A DNA stretch of 64,000 bases from Plasmodium relictum (taxonomy: Eukaryota > Apicomplexa > Aconoidasida > Haemosporida > Plasmodiidae): the NCBI RefSeq assembly GCF_900005765.1, contig NC_041691.1, positions 1,798,001 through 1,862,000 on the forward strand, written 5' to 3'. A program made the translations under genes and the position numbers. Below, one piece after another: positions 20,678 to 64,000 of the stretch (position 1 is its first letter; each line of letters opens with the position of its first letter). The notes below the pieces were generated by a model that was not told the origin of the DNA, made no database searches, and saw only the letters and a list, made by a program, of their open reading frames with translations.

Positions 20678-22927
20678 ATAGGAAATTCAAAAAAAAAAAA
20701 GAGATGTAGAATATTTAATAAGTTTTAGATCAAAAAGAAAATTAAAAAATTTTATTAACAAAAAAGAAATTAATTTGAAAGAAAAAAATTTTATTCTATG
20801 GGATTTTACAAATCTGTCTGATGTAATAAGATAAAATATATATATATATATATATATCTTAAAAAAAAGAAATAGAATAATTAAAATATATAAATATATG
20901 CAGAATGATTTAATTAAGTTTTTAAATATGAATGATTCAAATCAAAACCAAAGTAATGAAGAATATATTATTTTAGATAACACAATTAAAGATATAAGTA
21001 TAAAAAAAAAAAATGAAATAAATATAAGAAAAATTAATTTCTATTTTTTATTGATATTAAAAAATATATAATTCATTTTATTTTATTTTTTAAAAGACGA
21101 ATTAAGATATTATGAAATGAAAGTCTATAACACTAAAGATTATACGTTTTATATAAATATTAAAAAAATTATAGAAAATAAGATAAAAAAAATAATAATT
21201 TTTAAAATATTTGTTATAATAGTATAATTTAAAAAAAATTAAAATAAATAAAATAAGATAAATTTTATTTTATTTTTAATTTTTTTTTTTTTTTCTATAA
21301 TCTTCATACTATTCAGTTTTCTCTTATTATTCTATTTTACTTCACATGTGAATTGAATATTTTACTATTCCCCATTGAAAGCATATTAAAAAAATTAAAA
21401 CTTATGAAGTATGCAATATATATAAAAGAAGTATATTATTTTTTAAATATTATTTGAACTAAAGTTTAATGTATCTATATGTTATTTTTTTTTTTCTTTT
21501 GTAGAGCTAATCCAATATTAGCACTTGAAATGCAAGAAGAACTGTTAAATCATGAGTTGCAACATATATTAAGAAACTCAAAACTAAAAAGGTAAACATT
21601 AAAATACATTTTATTTTATTTTACTTTTATAATTTAGTTCATATAATATATAAAAATATTATATTTCTTATACTTAAATAAAAAAAAGCAAGTATTTATA
21701 TTCCTTTAGTATTAAATTTTTTGAGATAACAAGAAAAAAAGACAATAATAAATTCTAATTATTTTTATATATGTACTTATATACCATTTACTTTTTTTTT
21801 GTTTTTTTTCAAAAAAACAATTTTAGAAGAAGCATAAAAGAGAATTATGAGATTTTAAAAATGGAAGAAAATTTAATGAAATTAGGTACATTAATGTTAT
21901 TAGGTATTAACATTTAAATTTAGATATAATATTTTTTTATTTTTACATGTTTTGTTTATTTCTAAAAATATTTTTATACATTGTTACTAGTTGCAATTTC
22001 ATGTTAATAAAAAGAAGGAATAAAACAAACATATATATAATTAAAATAGTTATTTTATTTTTTTTTTTCTTTTTTGCAAAAATATTCTTTTTAAGGTTTT
22101 GGAGAAGCAGGAGCAAAAATTATTTCTAAAAATATTAATGAACAAGAAAATGTGAATCTATTAATAAATGGAGAAATAGTTTATTCAGTTTTTGCGTTTT
22201 GTGATATAAGAAACTTTACTGAAATCACAGAAATATTAAAAGAAAAGGTTATTATTATTTTTTTTCTTTTTAATAAAAGATTCTTTTGTTTCATTTTAAA
22301 ATTATTCATTATATATATATTATTTACATAGATTATGATATTTATTAATTTAATTGCTGAAATTATTCATGAATGTTGTGATTTTTATGGGGGTTCAATA
22401 AATAAAAATATAGGAGATGCATTTTTATTAGTATGGAAATGTAAGAAAAATAAATTTTATAACTCAGAAAATAGTCATAGAGAATTTTCAGAAAAAGAAA
22501 ATGTAAATAGAATCTGTGATTTAGCTTTTTTTTCTACAATACAAACATTAATTAAGCTTCAGCAGGTAAAGAATAATATTTCAAATTCTCAAAAATTATA
22601 GTATATATATATATAATTAATTTTTTTAATTAATTAAGTCAGAAAAAATAAATATATTTTTGAAAAATGAAAAAATTGATGATTTAGTTAATAAAAATAT
22701 TTTAGAGCTAAGTTTTGGTTTACATTTTGGTTGGGCTGTTGAAGGAGCTATTGGAAGTAGTTATAAAATTGATTTATCATATCTGTCAGAAAATGTAAAT
22801 ATAGCTAGTAGATTACAAGATATTTCAAAAATATATAGAAATAATATTGTTATATCAGGGGATTTTTATGATAATATGTCAAATAATTTTAAAGTTAGTA
22901 ATTCTTTTATTTCATAAAACAAAGTTC

Positions 22928-22989
<62 letters not shown>

Positions 22990-23809
22990 AATACATATAT
23001 AATTTATTTTTCCTATATAATAAAGAAATCTTTGAGAAGAATTGATAGAGCTAAATTAAAAGGATGCAAAAATCCTTTAAATTTATATACTTTTGATTTA
23101 TTCTTAAATAAAGTTAAAATAAAATTGAATAAAAAAATAAAAAAAAAAAAAAAAAGTAAAAATAATAACATATATTATGTTTTAGATTAAGAAGAGAATA
23201 AATGTGGACACATTTGATAATACCTTAAATTTTGATATAAAAATGCTAAAGGTAATAAAATTTTATAAAAGTAACTTTATTTTTGTATATCAAAATTTAA
23301 AAATTTCACTAAAATCAAATTATTTCAGATATTAGATGATATTAAAAAAAAAACAGATAGAAGAAAAAGAAAAAAGGAAGTATTAAATCTTAATTATAAT
23401 GTAATTCCAATAAAAAAACTTTTTTTTTTTTTTTTTTTTTTGTTTTAAAACAACATTTCATATGCTTAAGTAATATTCTAAACATAAGATATATGAAACA
23501 GTAATTTTTTTATTTTATTTTATATAAATATTTCCACATTTTTAGCTTTATGAAGAATATGTAAAAAATAAAGATATAAAATTAATAAAAGTTGATTTTC
23601 CCAATGATTATTTAAATTTATTTAATGATGCATTAGAATTATATTTAAATGGTAATTGGCATGAATCAAAAAAAAATTTAGAAAATTTAAAAAAGAATTA
23701 TTCTTTTGAAGACAATATTGTAAATCAATTGTTGAACTTTATGGAGCTGACAAATTTTACTACACCTCATGATTGGTGCGGATACAGGACATTTTTACAA
23801 AAATCATAA
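18684..23809 (+). CDS. ACalpha: Adenylyl cyclase alpha: voltage-sensor-like channel domain fused to class III cyclase
   Basis: Many-exon gene (about 20 short exons with T-rich introns); the span is firm at the 3' end, and the ATG at 18684 is the best start. The N-terminal half carries membrane segments (about 19500-19680, FFDILSLILLFFDLS) and an S4-like helix, LLKVLRVVKIYRLIIHF (about 19900-19960), with a positive residue about every third position. Another segment lies near 20280 (YFMSLLFIMLSYIFIEM). The C-terminal half (about 22095-23100) is a class III nucleotide cyclase: metal-binding Asp in FCDIRNFTE and in NIGDAFLLVWK, and the transition-state Asn/Arg in ENVNIASRLQ. It converts ATP to cAMP. 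This fusion is the known Plasmodium ACalpha, linked to sporozoite apical exocytosis. The tail runs to HDWCGYRTFLQKS. The first one or two exon joins are unresolved. Confidence 0.85.
20629..20672. repeat. (TA)n microsatellite in an intron of the cyclase gene
   Basis: An uninterrupted TA dinucleotide array inside an intron of the adenylyl cyclase gene. Likely length-polymorphic between isolates. Confidence 0.9.
22930..22986. repeat. (TA)n microsatellite in an intron of the cyclase gene
   Basis: A long uninterrupted TA array in the intron directly after the exon with the transition-state Asn/Arg motif of the cyclase domain. It is among the longest arrays in the window. Confidence 0.9.
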
Positions 23810-23862
23810 TTATAAATTTTATTTAAAATTTAATAAAAATATTTCATATTTAAAAATGAAAG

Positions 23863-23868
<6 letters not shown>

Positions 23869-23926
<58 letters not shown>
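23869..23926. repeat. (TA)n microsatellite between convergent genes
   Basis: TA array filling much of the 237-bp spacer between the stop codon of the cyclase gene (23809) and the end of the RRP5-like gene (24047). Apart from it the spacer shows only poly-A tracts. Confidence 0.9.
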
Positions 23927-23928
<2 letters not shown>

Positions 23929-24046
23929 TAATATATCTAAAAAAATATATGTTAAAAATGAATTTATGAAAATATTTAAAAAAAAAAGAAAAAAAAAAAT
24001 TAATCAAATAATAATGATAATAATATATATTTATATGTGTATATTT

Positions 24047-25726
24047 TCAACTAATTGCATTTAAGCTTTCTACGTAATCGTATGCTTTCTGTTGAACAAC
24101 TTTTTGATTATGCAAGTTTCCATGATTTTTTTCAAATAAAAGCCATTTAGTAAAAATCATTTTCATTATTCTTGGTTTAAATTTAATTGATATAAATCTT
24201 TCAAATATATTTCTAATAAATTCGATATCATTAATATTTAATTTAATTTTTTCTTTTTTTTCATTTTTTGTTAATGAATTTATATGAATATCTAAATATG
24301 TGAACCAAATATCTGATCTTTTGGGATATTCATGAATTAATTTTTCAAAGTATGTCTTTCCTCTTTCTTTATTAGAATATTTATATTCAAAACGTGCAGC
24401 ATTTATAATCATATTCAAGTGCTTTCTTTTTTCCAAAGAATGCAATGATTTTAATAAAATAGCATGAGCATACTCCTCATCCTTAAATGTATTATGTAAA
24501 ATTTCTAAATAACAAGACCATATTTTTTTAGAATATTTAAATTTTTTGATAGCTTCTTCGCATATTTCTTTTAATTGAATTAATTTATTATTTTTTTTTA
24601 AGATATTAATCATATGCAAATAAATGAATTTTTCATTATTACATAATAATGCTCTTTTAAATACATCATATAATTTATCTCCATATGAGCATTCCATGTT
24701 TAAATAACATAAATAAATGTTCAATTTCTCTTCTACTTCTTGTATATCTATAGTCTTTAAAGCTCTTTCAGCTACTTTTCTTGCTTCATTTAAATTATTT
24801 TTTTGTAGATAATATGCTATATAACTTATCCATATTGCGCTATTATTTTTTTTTGACATTAATAATTTCTCGTAATCAAAAGGGGTAACAATATTATTAT
24901 TATCTATATTAATATTATTAGAACTATTATTATTTATTTTTTTTTTCTTTTTTTCCTTATTATATATATTATTTTCAAATGGCTCATTCCATTTTTCATA
25001 TGTTTCTTCATTATTCTTTAATTTTTTTAAAGATTTTTCATTAATATCATTTGGATACTCTTTCAGTTTTTTTACCTTATCACTATCTCTTTCTTTTTTT
25101 ATTTCTGCATATAAACTTAAATAATTTTCCTTATTAAGATCTTTTGTAATAGACATTCCTTCAATTTTTTTTTTTTTTATGAATTTATAATTTTCACTAT
25201 TCATTTCTTTGTTTTTATTTATTTCATTATTCGCGATTTCTTTTTCTTCATCTACTTCATTTGATGAGTGAATTTTTTTTTTAATAACATTTTTCTTTTC
25301 ATTGTTGTTTATATCATATTTTTTTTTTCTCTCAACATTTGCATTTATTTCCTTATTTTTATTACTATTATTATAATTTTTAATTTTAATTACATTTTTC
25401 TCTTTATTGTTGTAATCTTTTACTCGACTACCACTGTTACAATCTTTTTTTGTTCTCTTTGTTACTATGTTTCCCTTTTCAATTTTTTTTTTTTTTTTAC
25501 TTATTTCTTTATCCTTAGTATTATTTTTTTTTTTTTCCAACTTTACTTTTTTTTCTTTTTTTTTTTTTCCCTCTGTGATTTTATATTTTGAATTATTTTT
25601 TTCTAATCCACATTTTATCTCTTTTTTTTTTTGGAGTTTTACCAAGCTTATATCATTTAACTTAATATCGTTATATTTATTTATTTTATTCTTATATAAA
25701 CCTAATTTTTTTTTTTTTATATCCAT
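24047..25726 (-). CDS. RRP5: RRP5-like rRNA biogenesis protein, C-terminal HAT/TPR repeats only
   Basis: Single-exon gene, 559 residues, ATG at 25726. Residues 1-280 are Lys/Asn-rich low complexity. Residues about 283-559 are half-a-TPR (HAT) repeats closely resembling the C-terminal module of RRP5/PDCD11. They begin DYEKLLMSKKNNSAIWISYI and include NEARKVAERALKTI, EKLNIYLCYLNMECSYGDKL, YPKRSDIWFTYLDI and KQ/KAYDYVESLNA at the end. In other eukaryotes RRP5 binds pre-rRNA with about a dozen S1 domains followed by this module, and is needed for 18S and 5.8S/25S rRNA formation in the nucleolus. No S1 domain is encoded here or in the 1.7 kb upstream, so this is a stand-alone C-terminal half. The basic N-terminal region could serve nucleolar targeting (inference). 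Confidence 0.88.
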   Translation of the reverse strand: MDIKKKKLGLYKNKINKYNDIKLNDISLVKLQKKKEIKCGLEKNNSKYKITEGKKKKEKKVKLEKKKNNTKDKEISKKKKKIEKGNIVTKRTKKDCNSGSRVKDYNNKEKNVIKIKNYNNSNKNKEINANVERKKKYDINNNEKKNVIKKKIHSSNEVDEEKEIANNEINKNKEMNSENYKFIKKKKIEGMSITKDLNKENYLSLYAEIKKERDSDKVKKLKEYPNDINEKSLKKLKNNEETYEKWNEPFENNIYNKEKKKKKINNNSSNNINIDNNNIVTPFDYEKLLMSKKNNSAIWISYIAYYLQKNNLNEARKVAERALKTIDIQEVEEKLNIYLCYLNMECSYGDKLYDVFKRALLCNNEKFIYLHMINILKKNNKLIQLKEICEEAIKKFKYSKKIWSCYLEILHNTFKDEEYAHAILLKSLHSLEKRKHLNMIINAARFEYKYSNKERGKTYFEKLIHEYPKRSDIWFTYLDIHINSLTKNEKKEKIKLNINDIEFIRNIFERFISIKFKPRIMKMIFTKWLLFEKNHGNLHNQKVVQQKAYDYVESLNAIS

Positions 25727-27469
25727 CTTTCTATTTTTAAATGCAATGAAGTTTTAGCAAATTTATATGAAGATATATCATTATTATAGGGTTTTTTTTT
25801 ATTTAAATTTTTTTTTTCTTTTATAATATATTGATGATTAAATATAAAATTAAAAAAAAAAAAAAAAGTTTTTATAAAGCAGAAATAACATATGATTTTA
25901 AATGAATCACAGACTAAAATATAGTTTAAAAAAAAAAAAAAAATAAAATTATATTAAAATATTTATAATTCCATTTTTAATTTATATTATTCTGTATTAT
26001 TTATTTTATTTTATTTTTTTTTTTTATAAAAATTTTTACAAAATAACAAGAAAAATAAAAGTTATTATTTCTTGTATTTTAACTTTGTTTTATCTTTTTT
26101 AACTCTTTAAAATATAGTACAATATTTTAATAAATATTTTTTGCTACTTTTTATTTCTTTTTCTTTATTTTTCGTAGAAAAATGAAGAATAATTTTTTTT
26201 TTGATTTGCCTTATTTTAAAATAAAAATATTTATGGTTTTTTTCTATTTATAAATATAGATTGGATATGAATATATTTGATTGTAACATTTATATAGTAT
26301 CATAAATATTTCATACAATGCACAAACGTTGCTCTGACTGGAATTTTTTCTTTGAAAACATATTTCGTCATATAATATTTTTATAGATATAATAACATAT
26401 TTAAGTTAGGATTACACGGTTTTTTTTTTTAATTTTTTTAAGTTTCATATAAATATATATGAAAATTATAAATTTATGTAAACATTTAAAAAGTACTCTT
26501 AAAAAAATGAAAAAAAAATATATATATACATATCTGTACGATTATTACATAAGTTAATGTTTTACTAAAAAAAAATACTTCTAAATAAATCAAATTTTGT
26601 TTCATATTATTTAGAAAAAGAATCTTCCTACAGAAAAATTATTGCATAATATTCATTTTATACTAGTTCCTGTTTTTTTAAAATACAACTTTTTCTATGA
26701 ACAATAATTTATACATATGCGATTTTATTTTTAAAAGAAATATTTGTGTTATAATAGCATTTCCAAAAATCCTTATTAGTTTTTTTAAGATAAAATTCCA
26801 TTTATTTTCAAAAAAATACAGGAATACAAAAATAAAAATAAAAACAAAATCTTATCTTTTGAGGTTATTTACATCAACTCTTAATAATAGTACATGTTTA
26901 TTTTATTTTACTTTTAAATTATTTATGATTTGCATACAATTTAAATAAATCAAATAAAAATACTTTTCATAAATAAAAAAAGAAAAGGAATTAATACATT
27001 TTTTTAATTATTAATCAGGCAGCTTTTTCTCTCTTTTTTTTTTTTTTTTATATCATCCTTAATATATATATCTATAAAAAATGATTAATACACGATTAGC
27101 ATTGTTATCATGTTGCTTATTTATTATATAAATTAAGTTTTAATATATATAATTTAAATTTCATCTTATCTTTAATACTATTATTTCAATATTCCTCAAT
27201 TGTAATTTTCCAAAAAAATTATTTCTGTTACATTACATATCAATTAAATATATTCAAAACTTGAAGTGAAGTATTAGTTTGTCTGTTATTTTTTTTTTCT
27301 TTATTTACGTTTTTTCTATATTTCTTCATATATTTAATGTAAATTTTTAATTACCTAAGAATTATCTTCACATTTTATTTATTTTACTAGTAACATATTG
27401 ACCTTTTATTTTATTGCCAATAATGATAATAATAATAATAATAATATTTTTACTTATCTTTTTAATATG
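25727..27469. other. Intergenic region (1.7 kb), one less AT-biased patch
   Basis: Spacer between two minus-strand genes. Most is T-rich or A-rich with no supported frame; a stretch at 26697-26948 is open but its peptide looks random. A patch around 26318-26370, containing GTTGCTCTGACTGG followed by AATTTTTTC, is strikingly less biased than its surroundings and may be a small RNA or promoter core. No tRNA signature is visible. Confidence 0.45.
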
Positions 27470-28021
27470 CTATGTAGTTTTTTCAATATTTTTTTGAAAT
27501 AACTTTGATTTATAATCATTGAATTGTTTTAATTGATCATTGAGAACCTTTTTTTGAGAAATATATTTTATATTATTCACTCGAAATAAATTATTTTGTG
27601 TTCTAAATACACAAGGAATTGCAACTTTAGCTGCTGCTTTTTTTAAAACTTTATAAACTGGATCATCAAAGCCTAATGTATTAAATGGACTAATAGTAGG
27701 AATATGAAATATAGTTTTTCCAGAAGGTACTCTAGCAACAAAATGATCAATTAGTCCTTTTCCTTGTCCCATTTTGGTTCCATCTGGTTTTTTTGTTACA
27801 CTATAAGTAGCATGAACATCAACAATGTACTCTTTTTTCTTTCCTAAATATTTACGTATTATTTGTCTCATTTCTACTAATTTCTCTCCTTTTATTCTTT
27901 TTGGACAAGCACATATCAATGATTTCCCAATTTTAATATCAGGAGAATTTAATGGAATTATTCTCCCTTTTGGTGCCTTTAATCGAACAGGCAAGGGACT
28001 TTTATAAATTATAGGTGGCAT
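27470..28021 (-). CDS. Mitochondrial ribosomal protein uL16 (L16)
   Basis: Single-exon gene, 183 residues, ATG at 28021. The uL16 core is recognisable: RQIIRKYLGKKKEYIVDVHA, then TKKPDGTKMGQGKGLIDHF and VARVPSGKTIFHI, equivalent to the MGKGKG / VKPG...LFEI region that contacts the tRNA elbow and the peptidyl-transferase centre of the large subunit. Length is close to bacterial L16 plus a C-terminal extension. There is no apicoplast-style signal peptide; the short basic start (MPPIIYKSPLPVRLKAPKGR) fits mitochondrial import, and Plasmodium mitochondrial ribosomes take all proteins from nuclear genes. A very long (TA)n array begins just upstream of the start codon. An apicoplast location is the alternative but less likely. 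Confidence 0.85.
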   Translation of the reverse strand: MPPIIYKSPLPVRLKAPKGRIIPLNSPDIKIGKSLICACPKRIKGEKLVEMRQIIRKYLGKKKEYIVDVHATYSVTKKPDGTKMGQGKGLIDHFVARVPSGKTIFHIPTISPFNTLGFDDPVYKVLKKAAAKVAIPCVFRTQNNLFRVNNIKYISQKKVLNDQLKQFNDYKSKLFQKNIEKTT

Positions 28022-28040
28022 ATTTTATTAGTAAAATATA

Positions 28041-28043
<3 letters not shown>

Positions 28044-28109
<66 letters not shown>
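28044..28109. repeat. (TA)n array upstream of the uL16 gene
   Basis: The longest TA dinucleotide array in the window, starting about 22 bp upstream of the uL16 start codon. It may sit in the 5' UTR or core promoter. Confidence 0.9.
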
Positions 28110-28112
<3 letters not shown>

Positions 28113-29353
28113 TTCAAATATCAATGTAAAAATATTCAGTAATTTAAATAGTACACATATATAGATAAAAAAAAATATGTTTTATTATATATAAATTTTT
28201 TAAGAGTAAAAATTTTTTTTTTAAATATTAGTTTTTTATTTCCTTTTTTTCAGTTAAACAATAAGTAATATATTCAATATTTTTTTTATTCTTCATTGTT
28301 TTTATTGCAATACTTTCTCAAATGATACCTAATTTTTTAAACATTTTACATCTTCAAAATTAATGATACATATTGTTTTAAAATACAAAAAAAAAAGAAA
28401 AAAAAATTAGTAATAAAGTTAATCTTTTTTTTTTTTTACTAAAACACACAAAACTTTAAAATTAAATTTTTATAAAATTAATTTAAAAAATTTAATTTTT
28501 AATAATATATGTTTTTTTTATAATTTAATAATAAATATTTATATACTATTTATGTTAATATTATTTTGTTTTTTTTAATAAATTATTAATTTTAAGATGA
28601 CATCAATAATTTTGAAAATATTCATATATAAAAAAAAAACATTAACTTTTCTTTTTTCTTATTTTACATAATTATGTGCAGCTAAGGAAAATATTGCAAA
28701 CTTCTAAATATAAAAAAAATCTTTTAAGCTTTGTAAAAAAAACAAAAATATATATAAATGTTTTATAAACTTTTCTTATATATATGATAGAAACATAAAT
28801 TGTTTAAAATAAAAGCTCTTTTAAATAATTATGATTAATCTCTTTTTTTTTTTTTTTAAATAGAAATATATTGAAAATTAAAATAAAGAAAATGTTTATG
28901 GACATAATTAGACTATTCATTTACAAACAAGTAAGAATTTTAAAAGAAAATATTTTCTTTTTATGTAATTTTATAAATAGCTCTATTTTTTTTCTATTGT
29001 GAATAATAAATTTTCATTGAAGCATTTAAATTTTCCTAATAATTTTCTATTGAATATGTTTATTTTTCTATTTTTAAATTTCGATATTACTATATAAAAT
29101 TTTTTTTGTGCAAATGAATTAAAATGGACATAGATACAAATAAAGATTATATTTTTGACAAAAAAGAATAAGCATTATTTATATAATATTTAATTGCTAA
29201 AAATAAAGTAAAAGACAAAAAAATTAAACAAAAATTTAAATACTAAAAAGTTGATGATGGATTTTTCTTAAGTAAAAATGTATTCTTATAAAATATTTTA
29301 AAAATATTCACCTTTTTTTCTTCTTCATATTTTTTTTTTATAATATATTTAAA
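28110..29353. other. Intergenic region between SOAP-like and uL16 genes
   Basis: AT-rich spacer with no supported gene. A short plus-strand frame beginning ATGTTTATGG near 28891 ends at a donor-like AAGTAAGA but has no convincing partner exon. The 3' UTR of the SOAP-like gene and the promoter of the uL16 gene must lie here. Confidence 0.5.
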
Positions 29354-35099: not shown

Positions 35100-37506
35100 A
35101 ATAAAATACACATAATAACAAAGTATGTAGAAAAGAAAAAAAGGAACTTTTCATTTTAATATTTTTTTTTTTTATTTCTTTTCCTTTTTTATTTTATGAT
35201 ATAATACAAAAATAATTACATATAAAAATTTAACAATTAATGAAATAGACATAAGAAAAAAAAAAAAGATACATATGCAATATTATTTTAATATATTTTT
35301 AAATATCATTTAAAACGTAAAAAAATCTTTAATGTATTCCGTTTAATGTCTTATCGAAAAATTTAAAAAAAAATATCTCTTCAAATTCTTTTCAAATAAT
35401 AAAGAAACTAACATAAAAAAAAAAAAAAAAAAATTTTTTTTTCTGTAAATATATATTTTTTACTAATTAAAAAAAATATATGTACATATGAAATATATAT
35501 ATCAAACAGACACTTTATAAAAAAAATCATTTTTATTGAAATTTAATTTTTTTTTTAATGTATAATTTTAAAATTATTTGTTTTTTTTAACAAATATATT
35601 TTATATATATTTAATTTTAACCACTCATATTTGATAAAATTTAATTATTACAAACATTTTTTACTTGTCTTGAATAGTAGAGGAATATATATTTTAATAA
35701 AAAAAAGAATATCATTTGATATATAAGAATATAAAATTCAATTGTAATAAAGTGAAATACATGAAATTCAAATATATTTTTTCAATTTTTTCTTTATTTC
35801 TATAAATTCTGTATATTTAAGGTAATCTTATATAGTTTAATTTTAATTAAATATTTAAAACAAAAATGTTTTATAAAACTTTTATATTACTATTCATATA
35901 ATGTAAACAATTAATTTTTTAAAATTAAGATTATTATATTTCAAAAATTTATTAGTATATCTTCTAACTACTAATAAAGTAAAATTTATTATTTATAATA
36001 AAATTAAAAAATTGTCTACGTAGAAATATTATTTAAAATAAAATTCTATTAAGATTAACTTTTTTATATATCAAAGTGTTAGTATACCAGTGATTATTTA
36101 ATGTAGTTATTAAGGTTATTTGAAAAAAGAAAAAGTAATAAATTTTTAAATTCTATTATTTATTTGTTTGCTTTTAAAAAAAAAATAAATAAAAGTAAAA
36201 AAAAAAAAAATCTTACCTTTAATATATAAACAATTCAAATATATTATGTACTTTACATTTCTTTGTTATATCACTACTTTTTTTTAACAATCACAATATA
36301 TTTTTATTTTGTATATATATATCATCTTTATATTTTTATTTCTTTACTTATGAAATAACATCTTATGTATTTCTGTATTTTTTATTAAAAAAAATCATTA
36401 AAAATATTTTAAAATACAGTATCTTTAACTAAAATAAATATTATTTCCTTTTGTTATATATAATTTATCATATATATAAATCCTAAAGTGATATTAAAAA
36501 ATAAGGTAATAACAATATAGGAAACAATAAAAAGTATATGTATTTTCTTAAAAAAAATTTATATATATATATATATATAGTATAATAATTTTTCTAAAGA
36601 TACAGTTTTTTTCTCTAATAAGATGAGTAATAATCTATTTTGAATAGTTATTAGTATAGATATATCAAAAACATTTTAAAAATTTATATATGATAGTTAA
36701 AAAAAAATAATAGTATGTTCTTGTAATGAAAATAATCAAATTTAAAATGGTTTTAAGAAATAAGTAAAATATTATACGTAACTATATAGTAATAATAATA
36801 AAGAAAAATATGATAATTTTTCAAAAAAAATGTAATTATTTTGAGAAATTTGATGTGACACCTATATAGTATTATTTTTGAAATATTTTTTATATTTTTC
36901 TATGAATATATAGCAGTGATATATACAAGATGAATTATTGATAAAATATATGCGCAAAAATATTTAACTGATATAATAAATTTAAAAATAAGAATTCATA
37001 GAGATATTTACTTTACTTATCCAATGGAGATGAATATATAATGTTTCTATTTGCTACTATAATATATGTTTGTCTATTAGTACTATTATCTTACTAATTT
37101 AAAACTTTAACAAGATTTATTTATTCAAATTAATCCAATACATAGTATCTTTATTTAAATAATATCATTACGAAATAAATTTAATAAAATCGAACTATAT
37201 TAAGTTTAACATGTTAAAATGCATATAATAAAGTGTAATTTAAACTTCCTATTATATTTTTTTATTATCTTATAAAATGTGTATCTCTGGTATTTTAATG
37301 TTATGAATTTATTGCTCATTTTGAATTGAATTTGTAATATGCACATTTCTTAATAATTTTAAAATATGTTCAATTTTGTTTTCTTCACATCTATAAGAAA
37401 AAAAAAATATATATATATTATTCTTATGTGTATAATTGTGTCTACTAAAATATAAATTATGTATATGCTCATATAAAACATATTAAAAGTAAAATTTTTA
37501 TAAAAA
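35100..37506. other. Convergent intergenic region (2.4 kb)
   Basis: Large spacer between the 3' ends of cytochrome c (+) and the small gene at 37507 (-). It is uniformly AT-rich with no frame of coding character, no tRNA and no strong hairpin that I can see. It is long for a region flanked only by 3' ends, so an unannotated non-coding transcript is possible but unsupported. Confidence 0.5.
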
Positions 37507-46463: not shown

Positions 46464-47730
46464 ATGGCAACTGAATATTTGCATACACTAGAAGAATATT
46501 TTTTGAGTATCAAAAATAAGAGTTATATTGAAGCATATTTAATTAATCCGAAATTATCAAAATGGGATTTTTTAATATTCTTATTGATTTTTATGTTTGT
46601 AACTTTATTAAGATTGCTATTTTCAGGAATTAATAAGGTTATAGTAAGAAATAATAGTATTTTATATAGACTAGCTAGCAATTCTTTATTAGATAAAATT
46701 AATAAGAAATGGAATATTTCGAAAAAAGGTCAATTATATAAGTGGAAAGAAAATTTTTGGTTTGCAATTTGGCACACCTTTTCATTTTTGTATAATTTTG
46801 TTTTATTGTTATGCATGTCGGGATATTTAAATAATAAAAATGGATGGATAAAAATGTGTATAAAAGAGCCAACAGGAAAATGGCTTTTTTTAGTGACAGA
46901 AGAAGAGTTTAGTGAAAATAAAAGAGGATGGCCATTTATGTATACAAACAATTATGTGTATTATTTTTATATTTTACAAATATCTTATTGGTCATCTTGT
47001 CTCTTTTATTTAAATTACGAAATAAAAAGAAAAGATTTCTACATTTTTATTTTGCATCATATTTCTACTATAATTTTATTAGCTTATTCTCATGTACTTA
47101 ATTTCTGGAGAGTTGGATTACTAATTCTTTTTATTCATGATATAGTTGATATAGTTCTTTATTTTTCAAAGTTATTGAATTACTCAAATATAAGAAGTCA
47201 AATTCTTCTTTCAATATTTTATGTATTATTTGTCTTATCTTATTTTTTTTTTCGTATCTTTTTATATTTTTATTATATTGTTCTTCCTTTAAGCAATACG
47301 AAAATTATTCGATCTTATACTGATGGTTTTATATCAACACACTTTGATGTTCCTGGTGGAATAGTTTTAATTATTTTTTTATGGGCATTAATGGTATTAT
47401 AACTGCACAAAAACTTGAAATGTTTTATTTTTATTTATTCTATTCTTCATTTTTTCCTTTTTGTTATATTCAATTTTTTTTTTTTTTTCAGTTTATGCAC
47501 TGTTACTGGTTTTTCTTAATTTTAAAGATGAGTCGTATTTTTATTATCAAAACAAGTAATAGAAAAAAATAAAAATATATATATATATATATATAAATAC
47601 TTATATCTCTAAAATTTTTTACATTTTTTTTTTTTTTATTAAAGTGAGAAATGAAAAAATCACTGATATAAGAAGTGATGATGAAGATGATAATGCATCA
47701 ACTACAGAGAGTATAAAAAAGGAAAATTAA
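46464..47730 (+). CDS. LAG1: LAG1/TLC-domain ceramide synthase
   Basis: Three exons, 46464-47393, 47492-47555 and 47645-47730, give 359 residues. This is a multi-pass membrane protein with a TLC domain. The catalytic Lag1p motif is clear: FYIFILHHISTIILLAYSH, then LNFWRVGLLILFIHDIVDIV, including the paired His and the HDIxD segment needed for ceramide synthesis. Ceramide synthases N-acylate sphinganine with fatty acyl-CoA in the ER membrane. The short third exon adds a hydrophilic acidic tail (RSDDEDDNASTTESIKKEN), a likely cytosolic regulatory end. There is no Hox-like domain, as in fungi and plants. The gene is convergent with the selenoprotein gene and carries no overlap with its SECIS. 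Earlier literature calls it longevity-assurance protein. Confidence 0.92.
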
Positions 47731-48112
47731 TGTTAATACTATTTAGTTAAAATTATATACATTTAAATATGGGCATCCCTTCCTTCATAATACTTCTTTT
47801 TTTTTTTTTTAAATAAATATCTATATATAAATTATGATATAAATTCATTAAATAAATACTTTTCACATATATAGAAATAAAAAATTATATATATATACTT
47901 TTCATAATTTCATTTTTTAATTTTTTTTTGTAATTCAATAATGTTCATATGATAATAAACAATATATTACATAAAAAAGAAAAAGTTAAATTTCTAAAAT
48001 GAATAATCTTCTAAAATATAAATTGATATTCCTATAAGTTTTTTTTTTTTTTTATCATACTTGATATATTACTATAAACTAAGTACATATATAAATAAAT
48101 ATGATATCATTT
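47731..48112. other. Convergent 3' region between LAG1 and the selenoprotein gene
   Basis: Spacer to the right of the LAG1 stop. Its left part is LAG1 3' UTR; its right part probably belongs to the 3' UTR of the selenoprotein mRNA (minus strand), beyond the SECIS hairpin. Nothing else is recognisable. Confidence 0.5.
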
Positions 48113-48160
48113 GTCATTGCTAATTTATACATTATTCGTATTTTCAAATTAGCAAATCAT
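48113..48160 (-). promoter_or_regulatory. SECIS element (selenocysteine insertion) in the selenoprotein 3' UTR
   Basis: On the minus strand, 5' to 3': the core ATGA (48160-48157), a helix strand TTGCTAATTT, a loop beginning GAAAATAC and closing GTAT, the exact complement AAATTAGCAA, and the core TGAC (48116-48113). The 10-bp helix is perfect. The AA platform starts about 12 nt after the quartet, as SECIS geometry requires. ATAC/GTAT can form a small extra stem on top, as in form II SECIS elements. The flanks can pair weakly to make helix I. It lies about 107 nt past the in-frame TGA. Confidence 0.82.
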
Positions 48161-48260
48161 TTATGAACATATTTATTTAAAACTCATTTTTCTTATTATT
48201 GCATAGTTTATTTTATTTTATTTTTTTTTTCCCCTATTAAAGAAAAAAAAAAAAGAAAAA

Positions 48261-48869
48261 TTAACCTCAAGTACTACCTAAGCACGTACCTAAATTTTTC
48301 AATTCCATTATTTTATTTTTTCGAAGGTCTCCATATTTTTTTTTTTTGTGAAAATTGTCATCACTATCATAGTTGTTTCTATTAGATACCTATAATCAAG
48401 ACAAGCATATATATATTAATCTAAAAAAATATTTATACAATCATTTTGTAAATAAAAATTTTTTTTTATAATAAAAATAAAAAAAAAAGGAGAAAAAATT
48501 TACATTATCGTTATTAGATAATCCAAGTAAAGTTTTAAAAAATATATTTATCTAAAAAAAAAAAAAAAAAGTTCATTCGTAATAATATAATTTTTATATT
48601 ACTTAAGCTTAAATATATTAATTTCAATAATTAACATATAATATATAATTTTTTTTTTAATCTCAATTTTTTTAATCTCAATTTTTTCATTTTACTATAT
48701 TAAAAGCTGTTTTAAGAAAATTGATAATATTATTTATTAAGTTAATTAAAGGTAATATAAATTTATTATGCTTATAATTCTTTCTTCTTAATTGTTCATG
48801 CTTAAGTTTTCTATCTTTTAAAATCTTATCATATTCATTATCATACTTTTTTTCTTTTTCATAATTCAT
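48261..48869 (-). CDS. SelK-like selenoprotein with penultimate Sec (116 aa)
   Basis: Splicing complement(48261-48389, 48504-48551, 48696-48869) gives 116 residues if the TGA at 48269-48267 is read as selenocysteine; the end is then Ser-Thr-Sec-Gly-stop (ACT TGA GGT TAA). The ATG is at 48869. A Lys/Asp-rich N terminus is followed by a hydrophobic segment (FILPLINLINNIINFLKTAF) and INIFFKTLLGL, matching the FFKTLL of mammalian SelK. A hydrophilic tail follows (NNYDSDDNF, KIMELKNLG). SelK and SelS are ER-membrane selenoproteins with Sec near the C terminus, linked to ER-associated degradation and palmitoylation. Plasmodium is known to have a small set of selenoproteins and Sec machinery. A SECIS hairpin stands in the 3' UTR. 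If TGA were a plain stop, only two residues would be lost. Confidence 0.8.
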
Positions 48870-62024: not shown

Positions 62025-62084
<60 letters not shown>

Positions 62085-64000
62085 TAATATAAAATTATTT
62101 GAATATATATTTTTTTTTTATTTTTCGTAAGCTTCAATTAGCCTTTTTTTTTCCCCTTTTTTCGTTTATAAGGTTATGTATATATTTTCTCATATATTAA
62201 AAATTTTTGATTATACCCTTATTCATATAGGAAGAAATTTCTTTTTTTATATATAACTGATATTTCAGAACACTTTTCATCGTTATTATTTTTGAGAAAC
62301 TTTTTATATATCTAATCTATGATATATATTTATTTCATATTTAAAAAGATATTTGATTATTCTAAGGATTTGTTCTCGATATTAAAAAAAAAAAAAAAAG
62401 CATGCACCTCTCATAAAGTATTTTTGTAATTGTCTAATAAAAATATATATTATTTTTTTTATTATTCTCGTATATGAATTTACATAAAATTATGATTTCT
62501 TCTATTGAATACTATATTTTATTTTTTAATATAATTTATTTTTAAATATATTAACGAAAATACATATAATTTAAAGTAAAGAACAAAATGGGCTTATTAA
62601 GATAAGAAAATTAAATTACAAATAATGGTATTCATAAAATTATTTTTTATTTTCTTATCAGAATTTTATAAAGGTATAGTTTTGTTAAAACGAAAAAAGA
62701 AAAAAAAGGAAAATTTTATAAGATAAACTATTTATTTTTTAATTTAGACATCTTTATATATTATAAATTTTAGATTACCAAAAAAAAAAAAAAAAATAAT
62801 AAAAAATAAGGCATCTGATTTTTACAAGCATATTTATTTATTTTGATATTTTTTATATTGTTATCTTTATATTTTTTTTTAATTTGATATATCAGAAAGT
62901 ATATTTTTCTAATTTTTGGTTACTGAAATAAATTTTAAATAAATATTAACTTATATTTTTCTTATAAGCTATTAAAAATATGTGAATTAAAAATTCTTGA
63001 GTATATATAGTAGCAAATAATAACAAAAAATATGTTAACTCATGTTTTTTAAAATCTGCCATTATTTTACTCAAGAAATAACACATTAATATTCACATTT
63101 TTGTTTTACTTTATTTTTTTCCTCTAAAATATTTCTAAATAAATTATAAATGTAACTTAAAATTTTAATTTTTTTCTTTTTTTTTTCAATAAAATTATTT
63201 TAAAAATACTTTATTAAACTATTTTTCATACTTTAAAGTTTATTTTTATTTTTTCCTAGTATCATAAATATTTTATCAAAGATGCATATGATTTCATTTT
63301 ATTTAAAAATATTTAAGTATATAGAGTCATTTAATTATTTTACTTCTTTTTATATAAGAATGTAAGTATTATATGAATACTTAATAATCCTACTAGCTTC
63401 AGTTTAATAATATATATATTTTTGTCTTTTTTTACCTTTTTTAAATTCAATATAAATACGAATAACAAATTTGTTGATTTTTTAAAATATATTTTTTTTT
63501 TTTAAATTGAAAATAAAAGGAAAAAAAATAAAAAATCATATAATACTAAAAAGAGGAAAAATGAAAAAATATTAATTTCCAAATTAAATTAAATAAAAAA
63601 AAAAAAATTATTATATATTTCCTTTTAATTTATTTTGAAAATTATAGTTTATTTTGACTATTTATTTAAAGGAAAATTAAATGAAATAATTTTTTCTTTT
63701 TTTTTCTTTTTTTCTTTTTTTTTTTTAGAACATTTTTAAAAATATAAAACATTTTTTATATTTATAATAATAATAATAATTAAATTTGATTATGTTTTTG
63801 GTTTTATAAAATGAAAGTTGATACAAATATAATTCTAAGTATATATATATTTGTAAGATATATATATATTTTTTTTTTTTTTTTTGAATAAGTATTATTA
63901 AAATTTTTATTTTTTATACCGCTTTAAAAATGCAGAAAAGATTGAAATATAACAATTTAACAGAATAAGTAAATGGTTTGAAATTTTTTTAAATATATAC
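61938..64000. other. Terminal intergenic sequence
   Basis: No supported gene in the last 2 kb. A long (TA)n array occupies 62027-62081 just past the EGF gene. TGCATG in inverse orientation (GCATGCACC) occurs at about 62401. Composition then stays uniformly AT-rich to the window edge. The next gene probably begins beyond it. Confidence 0.5.
62027..62081. repeat. (TA)n array downstream of the EGF-domain gene
   Basis: Uninterrupted AT dinucleotide array about 90 bp past the EGF gene stop, probably inside its 3' UTR. Confidence 0.9.

What the first reader, a model, noticed from the sequence alone, without database searches (positions are those of the whole stretch)
48113..48869. SelK-like selenoprotein gene with complete SECIS, hidden by a stop-codon TGA and two introns
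Seen: three short exons join in one frame to ...Ser-Thr-TGA-Gly-TAA, and 107 nt later the same strand carries ATGA, a perfect 10-bp helix, an AA-containing loop with an ATAC/GTAT mini-stem, and TGA. Known: SelK and SelS carry Sec in the penultimate or near-terminal position, and Plasmodium has Sec machinery with a handful of selenoproteins. A standard gene finder would truncate it or miss the tail. FFKTLL and the acidic-Tyr tail point to the SelK side rather than SelS. The form-II-like loop is a nice structural detail.
Basis: partly seen in the sequence, partly recalled or inferred. Interest (0 to 1): 0.85.

Follow-up and report, generated by a model that had tools for sequence, protein, structure and literature searches.

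The report
Malaria-parasite SelK-like selenoprotein gene
This is a small membrane-protein gene of a probable bird-malaria parasite whose apparent stop codon is most likely read as the selenium amino acid selenocysteine; it looks real, but it belongs to a family already annotated in several malaria parasites.

Summary
On the minus strand three exons (48869-48696, 48551-48504, 48389-48261) with GT..AG introns join to a 114-residue frame followed by TGA-Gly-TAA. An AUGA/UGA hairpin with a perfect 10-bp stem, an A-rich bulge, a mini-stem and a lower helix starts 100 nt after the TAA. A descriptor written after seeing it matched 2 places in the window and 0 in 200 kb of the same genome. The genome has tRNA-Sec, SepSecS, SelD and an eEFSec-like frame. 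Of 16 related protein clusters, 15 are named as Plasmodium (nine species), 9 carry 'selenoprotein' in a displayed name, and 14 end exactly before the Sec position. SelK_SelG is the best Pfam family but below its cut-off: SelK-like, membership unproven. Orthologous 3' UTR DNA was not found, so covariation is untested. The assembly fits P. relictum. Verdict: real, well read, an ordinary member of a known Plasmodium selenoprotein family.

The parts
48696..48869 (-). exon 1 (ATG 48869-48867): N-terminal charged part and start of the hydrophobic stretch
   Evidence: aligned with orthologues
48552..48695 (-). intron 1 (GTAAAA..TTTTAG, 144 nt)
   Evidence: a P. malariae model (P0006) lacks about the exon-2 residues and a P. 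falciparum model (P0007) joins foreign residues near this boundary, which hints at the same boundaries there
48504..48551 (-). exon 2: INIFFKTLLGLSNNDN, with the SelK-like FFKTLL motif
   Evidence: the SelK_SelG match covers residues 46-82
48390..48503 (-). intron 2 (GTAAAT..ATTATAG, 114 nt)
48261..48389 (-). exon 3: polar tail, ELKNLGTCLGST, Sec codon, Gly, TAA
48267..48269 (-). TGA read as selenocysteine (residue 115, penultimate)
   Evidence: the recoding is inferred
48095..48175 (-). SECIS element: lower helix, AUGA/UGA core, 10-bp helix II, GAAA bulge, 4-bp mini-stem (form II)

Best explanation
The locus is the avian-Plasmodium orthologue of a small Plasmodium selenoprotein of SelK-like build: a charged N-terminus, one hydrophobic segment ending in FFKTLL, and a polar tail ending Cys-Leu-Gly-Ser-Thr-Sec-Gly. 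The spliced mRNA carries a form-II SECIS 109 nt after the UGA; eEFSec with Sec-tRNA reads the UGA as selenocysteine instead of stopping. The penultimate Sec probably pairs with the invariant Cys five residues before it as a redox centre on the tail of an ER membrane protein. Shown: the open frame with GT..AG introns, the hairpin anatomy, Sec machinery genes, conservation up to the TGA. Inferred: splicing, Sec insertion, ER location, the Cys-Sec pair and a SelK-type role. The confidence is for 'selenoprotein decoded through this SECIS'; SelK kinship and the redox role are less sure.
For: Open three-exon frame to TGA-Gly-TAA. Complete SECIS-like hairpin on the same strand, rare in this genome by descriptor. 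tRNA-Sec at 69.3 bits (cut-off 47) with anticodon TCA, SepSecS E 9.3e-85, SelD 176.8 bits with its neighbours in the frame, and a 690-aa frame with solved eEFSec as best matches, E 3.6e-62 and 4.9e-62. Orthologue clusters: 16 found, 9 with 'selenoprotein' in a displayed name, 14 ending at the residue before the Sec position. In 13 aligned rows E103, L104, K105, N106, C110, L111 and G112 are invariant. SelK_SelG is the top Pfam family for this protein and four orthologues and matches 10 of 13.
Against: No transcript, peptide or selenium-labelling data. No orthologous DNA. Rfam SECIS_1 does not match. The SelK score (19.1 bits) is below the 23.3 cut-off, and a low-complexity stretch of this genome reaches 20.9 bits, which I judge chance (L012). 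None of the 25 matches of the SelB family model passes its cut-off; the eEFSec candidate was picked by its solved-structure match. The SepSecS match has one TAA inside. Hydropathy of the membrane segment is modest (KD-19 maximum 1.32; 1.43-1.88 in eight orthologues). The AlphaFold model, made for the P. falciparum orthologue P0002, is of low confidence (pLDDT 63.7, pTM 0.27). One paper says that most Plasmodium have no selenoproteins (PMC7539508, passage).
Confidence: 0.93

Rival explanations
1. The gene is real but the TGA is an ordinary stop, and the hairpin is a chance AT-rich inverted repeat.
For: Records of 14 of 16 clusters end at this point, which a true stop would also give; 9 of 1598 tiles of the window fold as well; a second descriptor match without known meaning lies in the window at 36810; no Rfam SECIS match.
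Against: The hairpin has the SECIS parts in the right order and strand and is rare by descriptor (0 in 200 kb); the genome keeps Sec machinery; 9 of 16 clusters are already named selenoprotein by a source; the stretch before the TGA is strongly conserved.
Confidence: 0.04
2. It is a selenoprotein but not a SelK homologue: a SelS-type or Plasmodium-specific protein with a similar plan. (A sub-question of the best explanation; the odds do not exclude each other.)
For: The SelK match is below the cut-off in every one of 13 members (best E 0.00024, 22.1 bits), and 3 of 13 members do not match at all; with my first, faulty sequence SelK_SelG was only third of three (E 0.12); hhalign probability 14% and 23%; SelS also has a penultimate Sec with an upstream Cys (PMC3628699, passages).
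Against: SelK_SelG is matched by 10 of 13 members and SelS by none at E up to 10; no SelS match in the genome, searched exon by exon; the FFKTL-type motif right after the hydrophobic stretch fits SelK.
Confidence: 0.35
3. Chance open frames, no gene.
For: The DNA is very AT-rich (GC 15-20% in 4-kb steps) and the exons are short.
Against: 59-62% identity over the whole length to four other Plasmodium proteins.
Confidence: 0.01

Closest known systems
Plasmodium 'selenoprotein, putative' (names shown for P. knowlesi, P. malariae and P. chabaudi; 'Selenoprotein' in UniRef for P. fragile and others; by recall one of Sel1-Sel4 of Lobanov et al. 2006, which of the four not established)
   Same: 52-62% identity over 91-100% of the length for seven of the eight apparently full-length named or unnamed models, 56% over 97% for the unnamed P0010; same C-terminal stretch up to the Sec position
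   Different: Species-level sequence differences; the records end before the TGA position and lack Sec-Gly
Selenoprotein K (Pfam SelK_SelG)
   Same: Small protein with one hydrophobic segment followed by an FFKTLL-type motif and a polar tail with a near-terminal Sec (position in SelK recalled); best Pfam family
   Different: Longer charged N-terminus (about 37 residues before the hydrophobic segment), no proline/glycine-rich tail like that of vertebrate SelK, a conserved Cys five residues before Sec; score below cut-off
Selenoprotein S
   Same: Penultimate Sec with an upstream Cys for a proposed selenosulfide (Cys174-Sec188; PMC3628699, abstract and passages)
   Different: No Pfam SelS match; the Cys-Sec spacing is 5 here against 14

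Membership tests
Eukaryotic selenoprotein gene | In-frame TGA in a conserved coding frame followed by a true stop | tested here: met
[quoted passage not shown]
   Anatomy by folding and descriptor; Rfam SECIS_1 does not match; that it lies in the mRNA is inferred
Eukaryotic selenoprotein gene | Sec machinery in the genome | tested here: met
   tRNA-Sec, SepSecS, SelD, eEFSec-like frame; SBP2 not established, PSTK not sought
Eukaryotic selenoprotein gene | TGA and SECIS conserved in orthologues at DNA level | not testable with these tools
   No orthologous DNA found; proteins only
Eukaryotic selenoprotein gene | Selenium in the protein | not testable with these tools
   Needs 75Se labelling or mass spectrometry
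Selenoprotein K | Score over the curated Pfam SelK_SelG cut-off (23.3 bits) | tested here: not met
   19.1 bits for this protein, 13.9, 22.1, 20.2 and 11.5 for four orthologues
Selenoprotein K | Hydrophobic segment followed by FFKTLL-type motif | tested here: met
   Residues 46-82 match profile positions 19-54
Selenoprotein K | Profile-profile similarity to vertebrate SelK | tested here: inconclusive
   hhalign probability 14% (17 columns, E 0.002) and 23% (29 columns, E 0.0009)
Selenoprotein S | Pfam Selenoprotein_S match | tested here: not met
   Not among the 11 families matched at E up to 10 by 13 members; none in the genome

The most novel reading that the evidence does not exclude
The Plasmodium family has its own short Cys-x4-Sec redox switch (CLGSTU) at the tip of a SelK-like membrane protein, so that Sec-containing and truncated forms act as on and off states tuned by selenium supply.
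Probability: 0.25. Interest if true: 0.5.

Novelty: already known. Interest (0 to 1): 0.2.

Why it matters
It adds a clean, probably avian-malaria example, with a full form-II-like SECIS, to a selenoprotein family whose retrieved records end before the Sec codon. It suggests that the family and its Sec machinery persist in the bird-infecting branch, and it points at a conserved Cys near the Sec that a redox assay could test. It does not change the picture of Plasmodium selenoproteins.

Tried and rejected
A second SelK candidate in the genome, L012 (20.9 bits), lies antisense to an acidic low-complexity reading frame and I judged it spurious. Two overlapping DNA matches to the 3' flank at C12:150890-150986 lie in T/A-rich sequence; I looked at one of the two loci. 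A first pattern search for the SECIS used a wrongly written pattern and is not used. No solved structure matched below E 0.68. The structure model of the P. falciparum orthologue is too weak to search with. Of the 25 SelB-model matches, L040 reads as a mitochondrial-type EF-Tu and L043 as an IF2 (judged by eye); L047 is the eEFSec candidate; the rest were not examined. The primary papers (Lobanov 2006, Mourier 2005) are not held; I know them only from reference lists and recall.

Rows dropped: of the 16 clusters, P0006, P0007, P0015 and P0016 (exon-skipped, fused or truncated gene models) were left out of alignment A3, which has the window protein plus 12; of these 12, P0005, P0012, P0013 and P0014 still carry apparent modelling faults around exon 2.

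Full report
What is there. On the minus strand, an ATG at 48869 opens a 174-nt exon; a 144-nt GT..AG intron, a 48-nt exon, a 114-nt GT..AG intron and a 129-nt exon follow. All three exons are multiples of three and join to a 351-nt frame: 114 residues, TGA (48269-48267), Gly, TAA (exon 3 with the TGA read as U).

The hairpin. The 81 nt from 48175 to 48095 fold as a lower helix of 8 and 4 bp, an internal loop holding AUGA (48160-48157) and UGA (48116-48114), a perfect 10-bp helix, a GAAA bulge and a 4-bp mini-stem with a 7-nt loop. That is the plan of a form-II SECIS (recalled). The energy is -16.3 kcal/mol, z -3.0, 2 of 200 shuffles as good; energy alone does not single it out (9 of 1598 minus-strand tiles fold as well). 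A descriptor with ATGA, a 10-13 bp stem without mismatches (G-T allowed), AA near the start of the loop and TGA matched 2 places in the window (this one and 36810 plus), none in twenty 10-kb stretches of the same genome on both strands, and 5 places in 1 Mb of simulated sequence on one strand. I wrote the descriptor after seeing the hairpin, and the second window match was not followed up. Rfam's SECIS_1 model matched nothing near here or in the genome, so this rests on anatomy, not on a family model.

Source. The window lies in an assembly of 22,602,028 bases in 514 contigs. The avian malaria genome paper reports 22.6 Mb in 498 scaffolds for P. relictum and 23.8 Mb in 152 for P. gallinaceum (PMC5880244, passages). 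P. relictum is therefore the likely source; this is an inference.

Sec machinery. The genome has a tRNA-Sec (69.3 bits over a cut-off of 47, anticodon TCA), SepSecS (E 9.3e-85, with one TAA inside the match), SelD (three pieces in one 1137-aa frame; 176.8 bits for the best piece with its neighbours) and a 690-aa frame whose best solved relatives are eEFSec (E 3.6e-62 and 4.9e-62). The SelB family model itself has 25 matches, none over its cut-off. Six L7Ae matches were found, one of them in a 548-aa frame at C8:986201-986479; whether it is SBP2 was not tested. One paper states that P. falciparum has no SBP2 homologue (PMC4086275, passage), another names P. vivax among organisms with a poorly conserved SBP2 SID (PMC2746813, passage).

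Orthologues. Two searches gave 16 protein clusters: 15 with a Plasmodium name, covering nine species (P. fragile, falciparum, ovale curtisi, knowlesi, malariae, inui, yoelii, chabaudi, vinckei), and one without a name. A displayed name contains 'selenoprotein' in 9 of 16 (names are cut in the table). In 14 of 16 the sequence ends at CLG(S/N)(S/T), the residue before the Sec codon here; the other two are gene models that leave the family during or after exon 1. In the 13-row alignment (four of the 16 dropped, the window protein added) E103, L104, K105, N106, C110, L111 and G112 are invariant. A strongly conserved coding end, with the records stopping at the same place, is expected for a penultimate Sec; it could also be seen for a plain stop, so it is supportive only. 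No P. relictum name was among the displayed hits, so its annotation status is unknown to me.

SelK or not. SelK_SelG is the top Pfam family for the protein and four orthologues (11.5 to 22.1 bits, cut-off 23.3), and 10 of 13 members match it against at most 2 for any other family. With my first, faulty sequence (one Ile missing at an exon joint) it was third of three at E 0.12. The matched part is the hydrophobic segment with FFKTLL. A match in a low-complexity stretch of the genome, which I judge chance, reaches 20.9 bits, and hhalign against ten vertebrate SelK sequences gives 14% and 23% probability. SelS is not matched. I call it SelK-like and leave membership open. SelK is described as among the most widespread selenoproteins (PMC2375036, passage).

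How it most likely works. Sec insertion by the standard eukaryotic route (inferred). AlphaFold, for the P. falciparum orthologue P0002 and at low confidence, gives one long helix 3-66, a stretch 73-97 under pLDDT 50 and a short helix 98-112. The invariant Cys-110 and Sec-115 are five residues apart; SelS offers a precedent for a Cys-Sec pair in the best conserved part of a tail (Cys174-Sec188; PMC3628699, passages). A redox centre on a membrane-anchored tail is the most likely function, probably at the ER (recalled for SelK; stated for SelS in PMC3628699).

Novelty. At least four selenoproteins, or putative selenoprotein genes, are cited for P. falciparum or Plasmodium with a 2006 reference (PMC12486841, passages; PMC6155587, passages). 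Against this, one paper says fewer than four, and none in most Plasmodium (PMC7539508, passage); the nine species do not fit that remark if the names are right. The primary paper is not held. By recall it reports Sel1-Sel4 with two of them distantly related to SelK and SelS; which one this is I could not establish. A library search for 'Plasmodium relictum' with 'selenoprotein' listed 2 papers, neither with a title on parasite selenoproteins (listing only). The finding is correct and carefully read, but ordinary.

Noticed in passing
window 46464-47402 (+): A 312-aa frame with a TLC domain (TRAM_LAG1_CLN8, E 7.4e-28), a ceramide-synthase-like membrane protein, neighbour of the selenoprotein gene.
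   Followed up: partly
window 36810 (+): Second match to the SECIS-like descriptor, a 12-bp stem with one G-T pair and a 12-nt loop; no gene context examined.
   Followed up: no
G000 C8:986201-986479 (+): L7Ae domain in a 548-aa frame, a possible SBP2-like protein; two papers read in passages differ on whether Plasmodium has SBP2.
   Followed up: no
P0010 (source code lgn, contig of 4205 bases): A 113-aa relative, 56% identical over 97%, without a species name; possibly another haemosporidian.
   Followed up: no
window 20680-28520 and 62080-62120 (-): Nine 81-nt tiles fold at least as stably as the SECIS (down to -33.9 kcal/mol at 28120); nature not examined.
   Followed up: no
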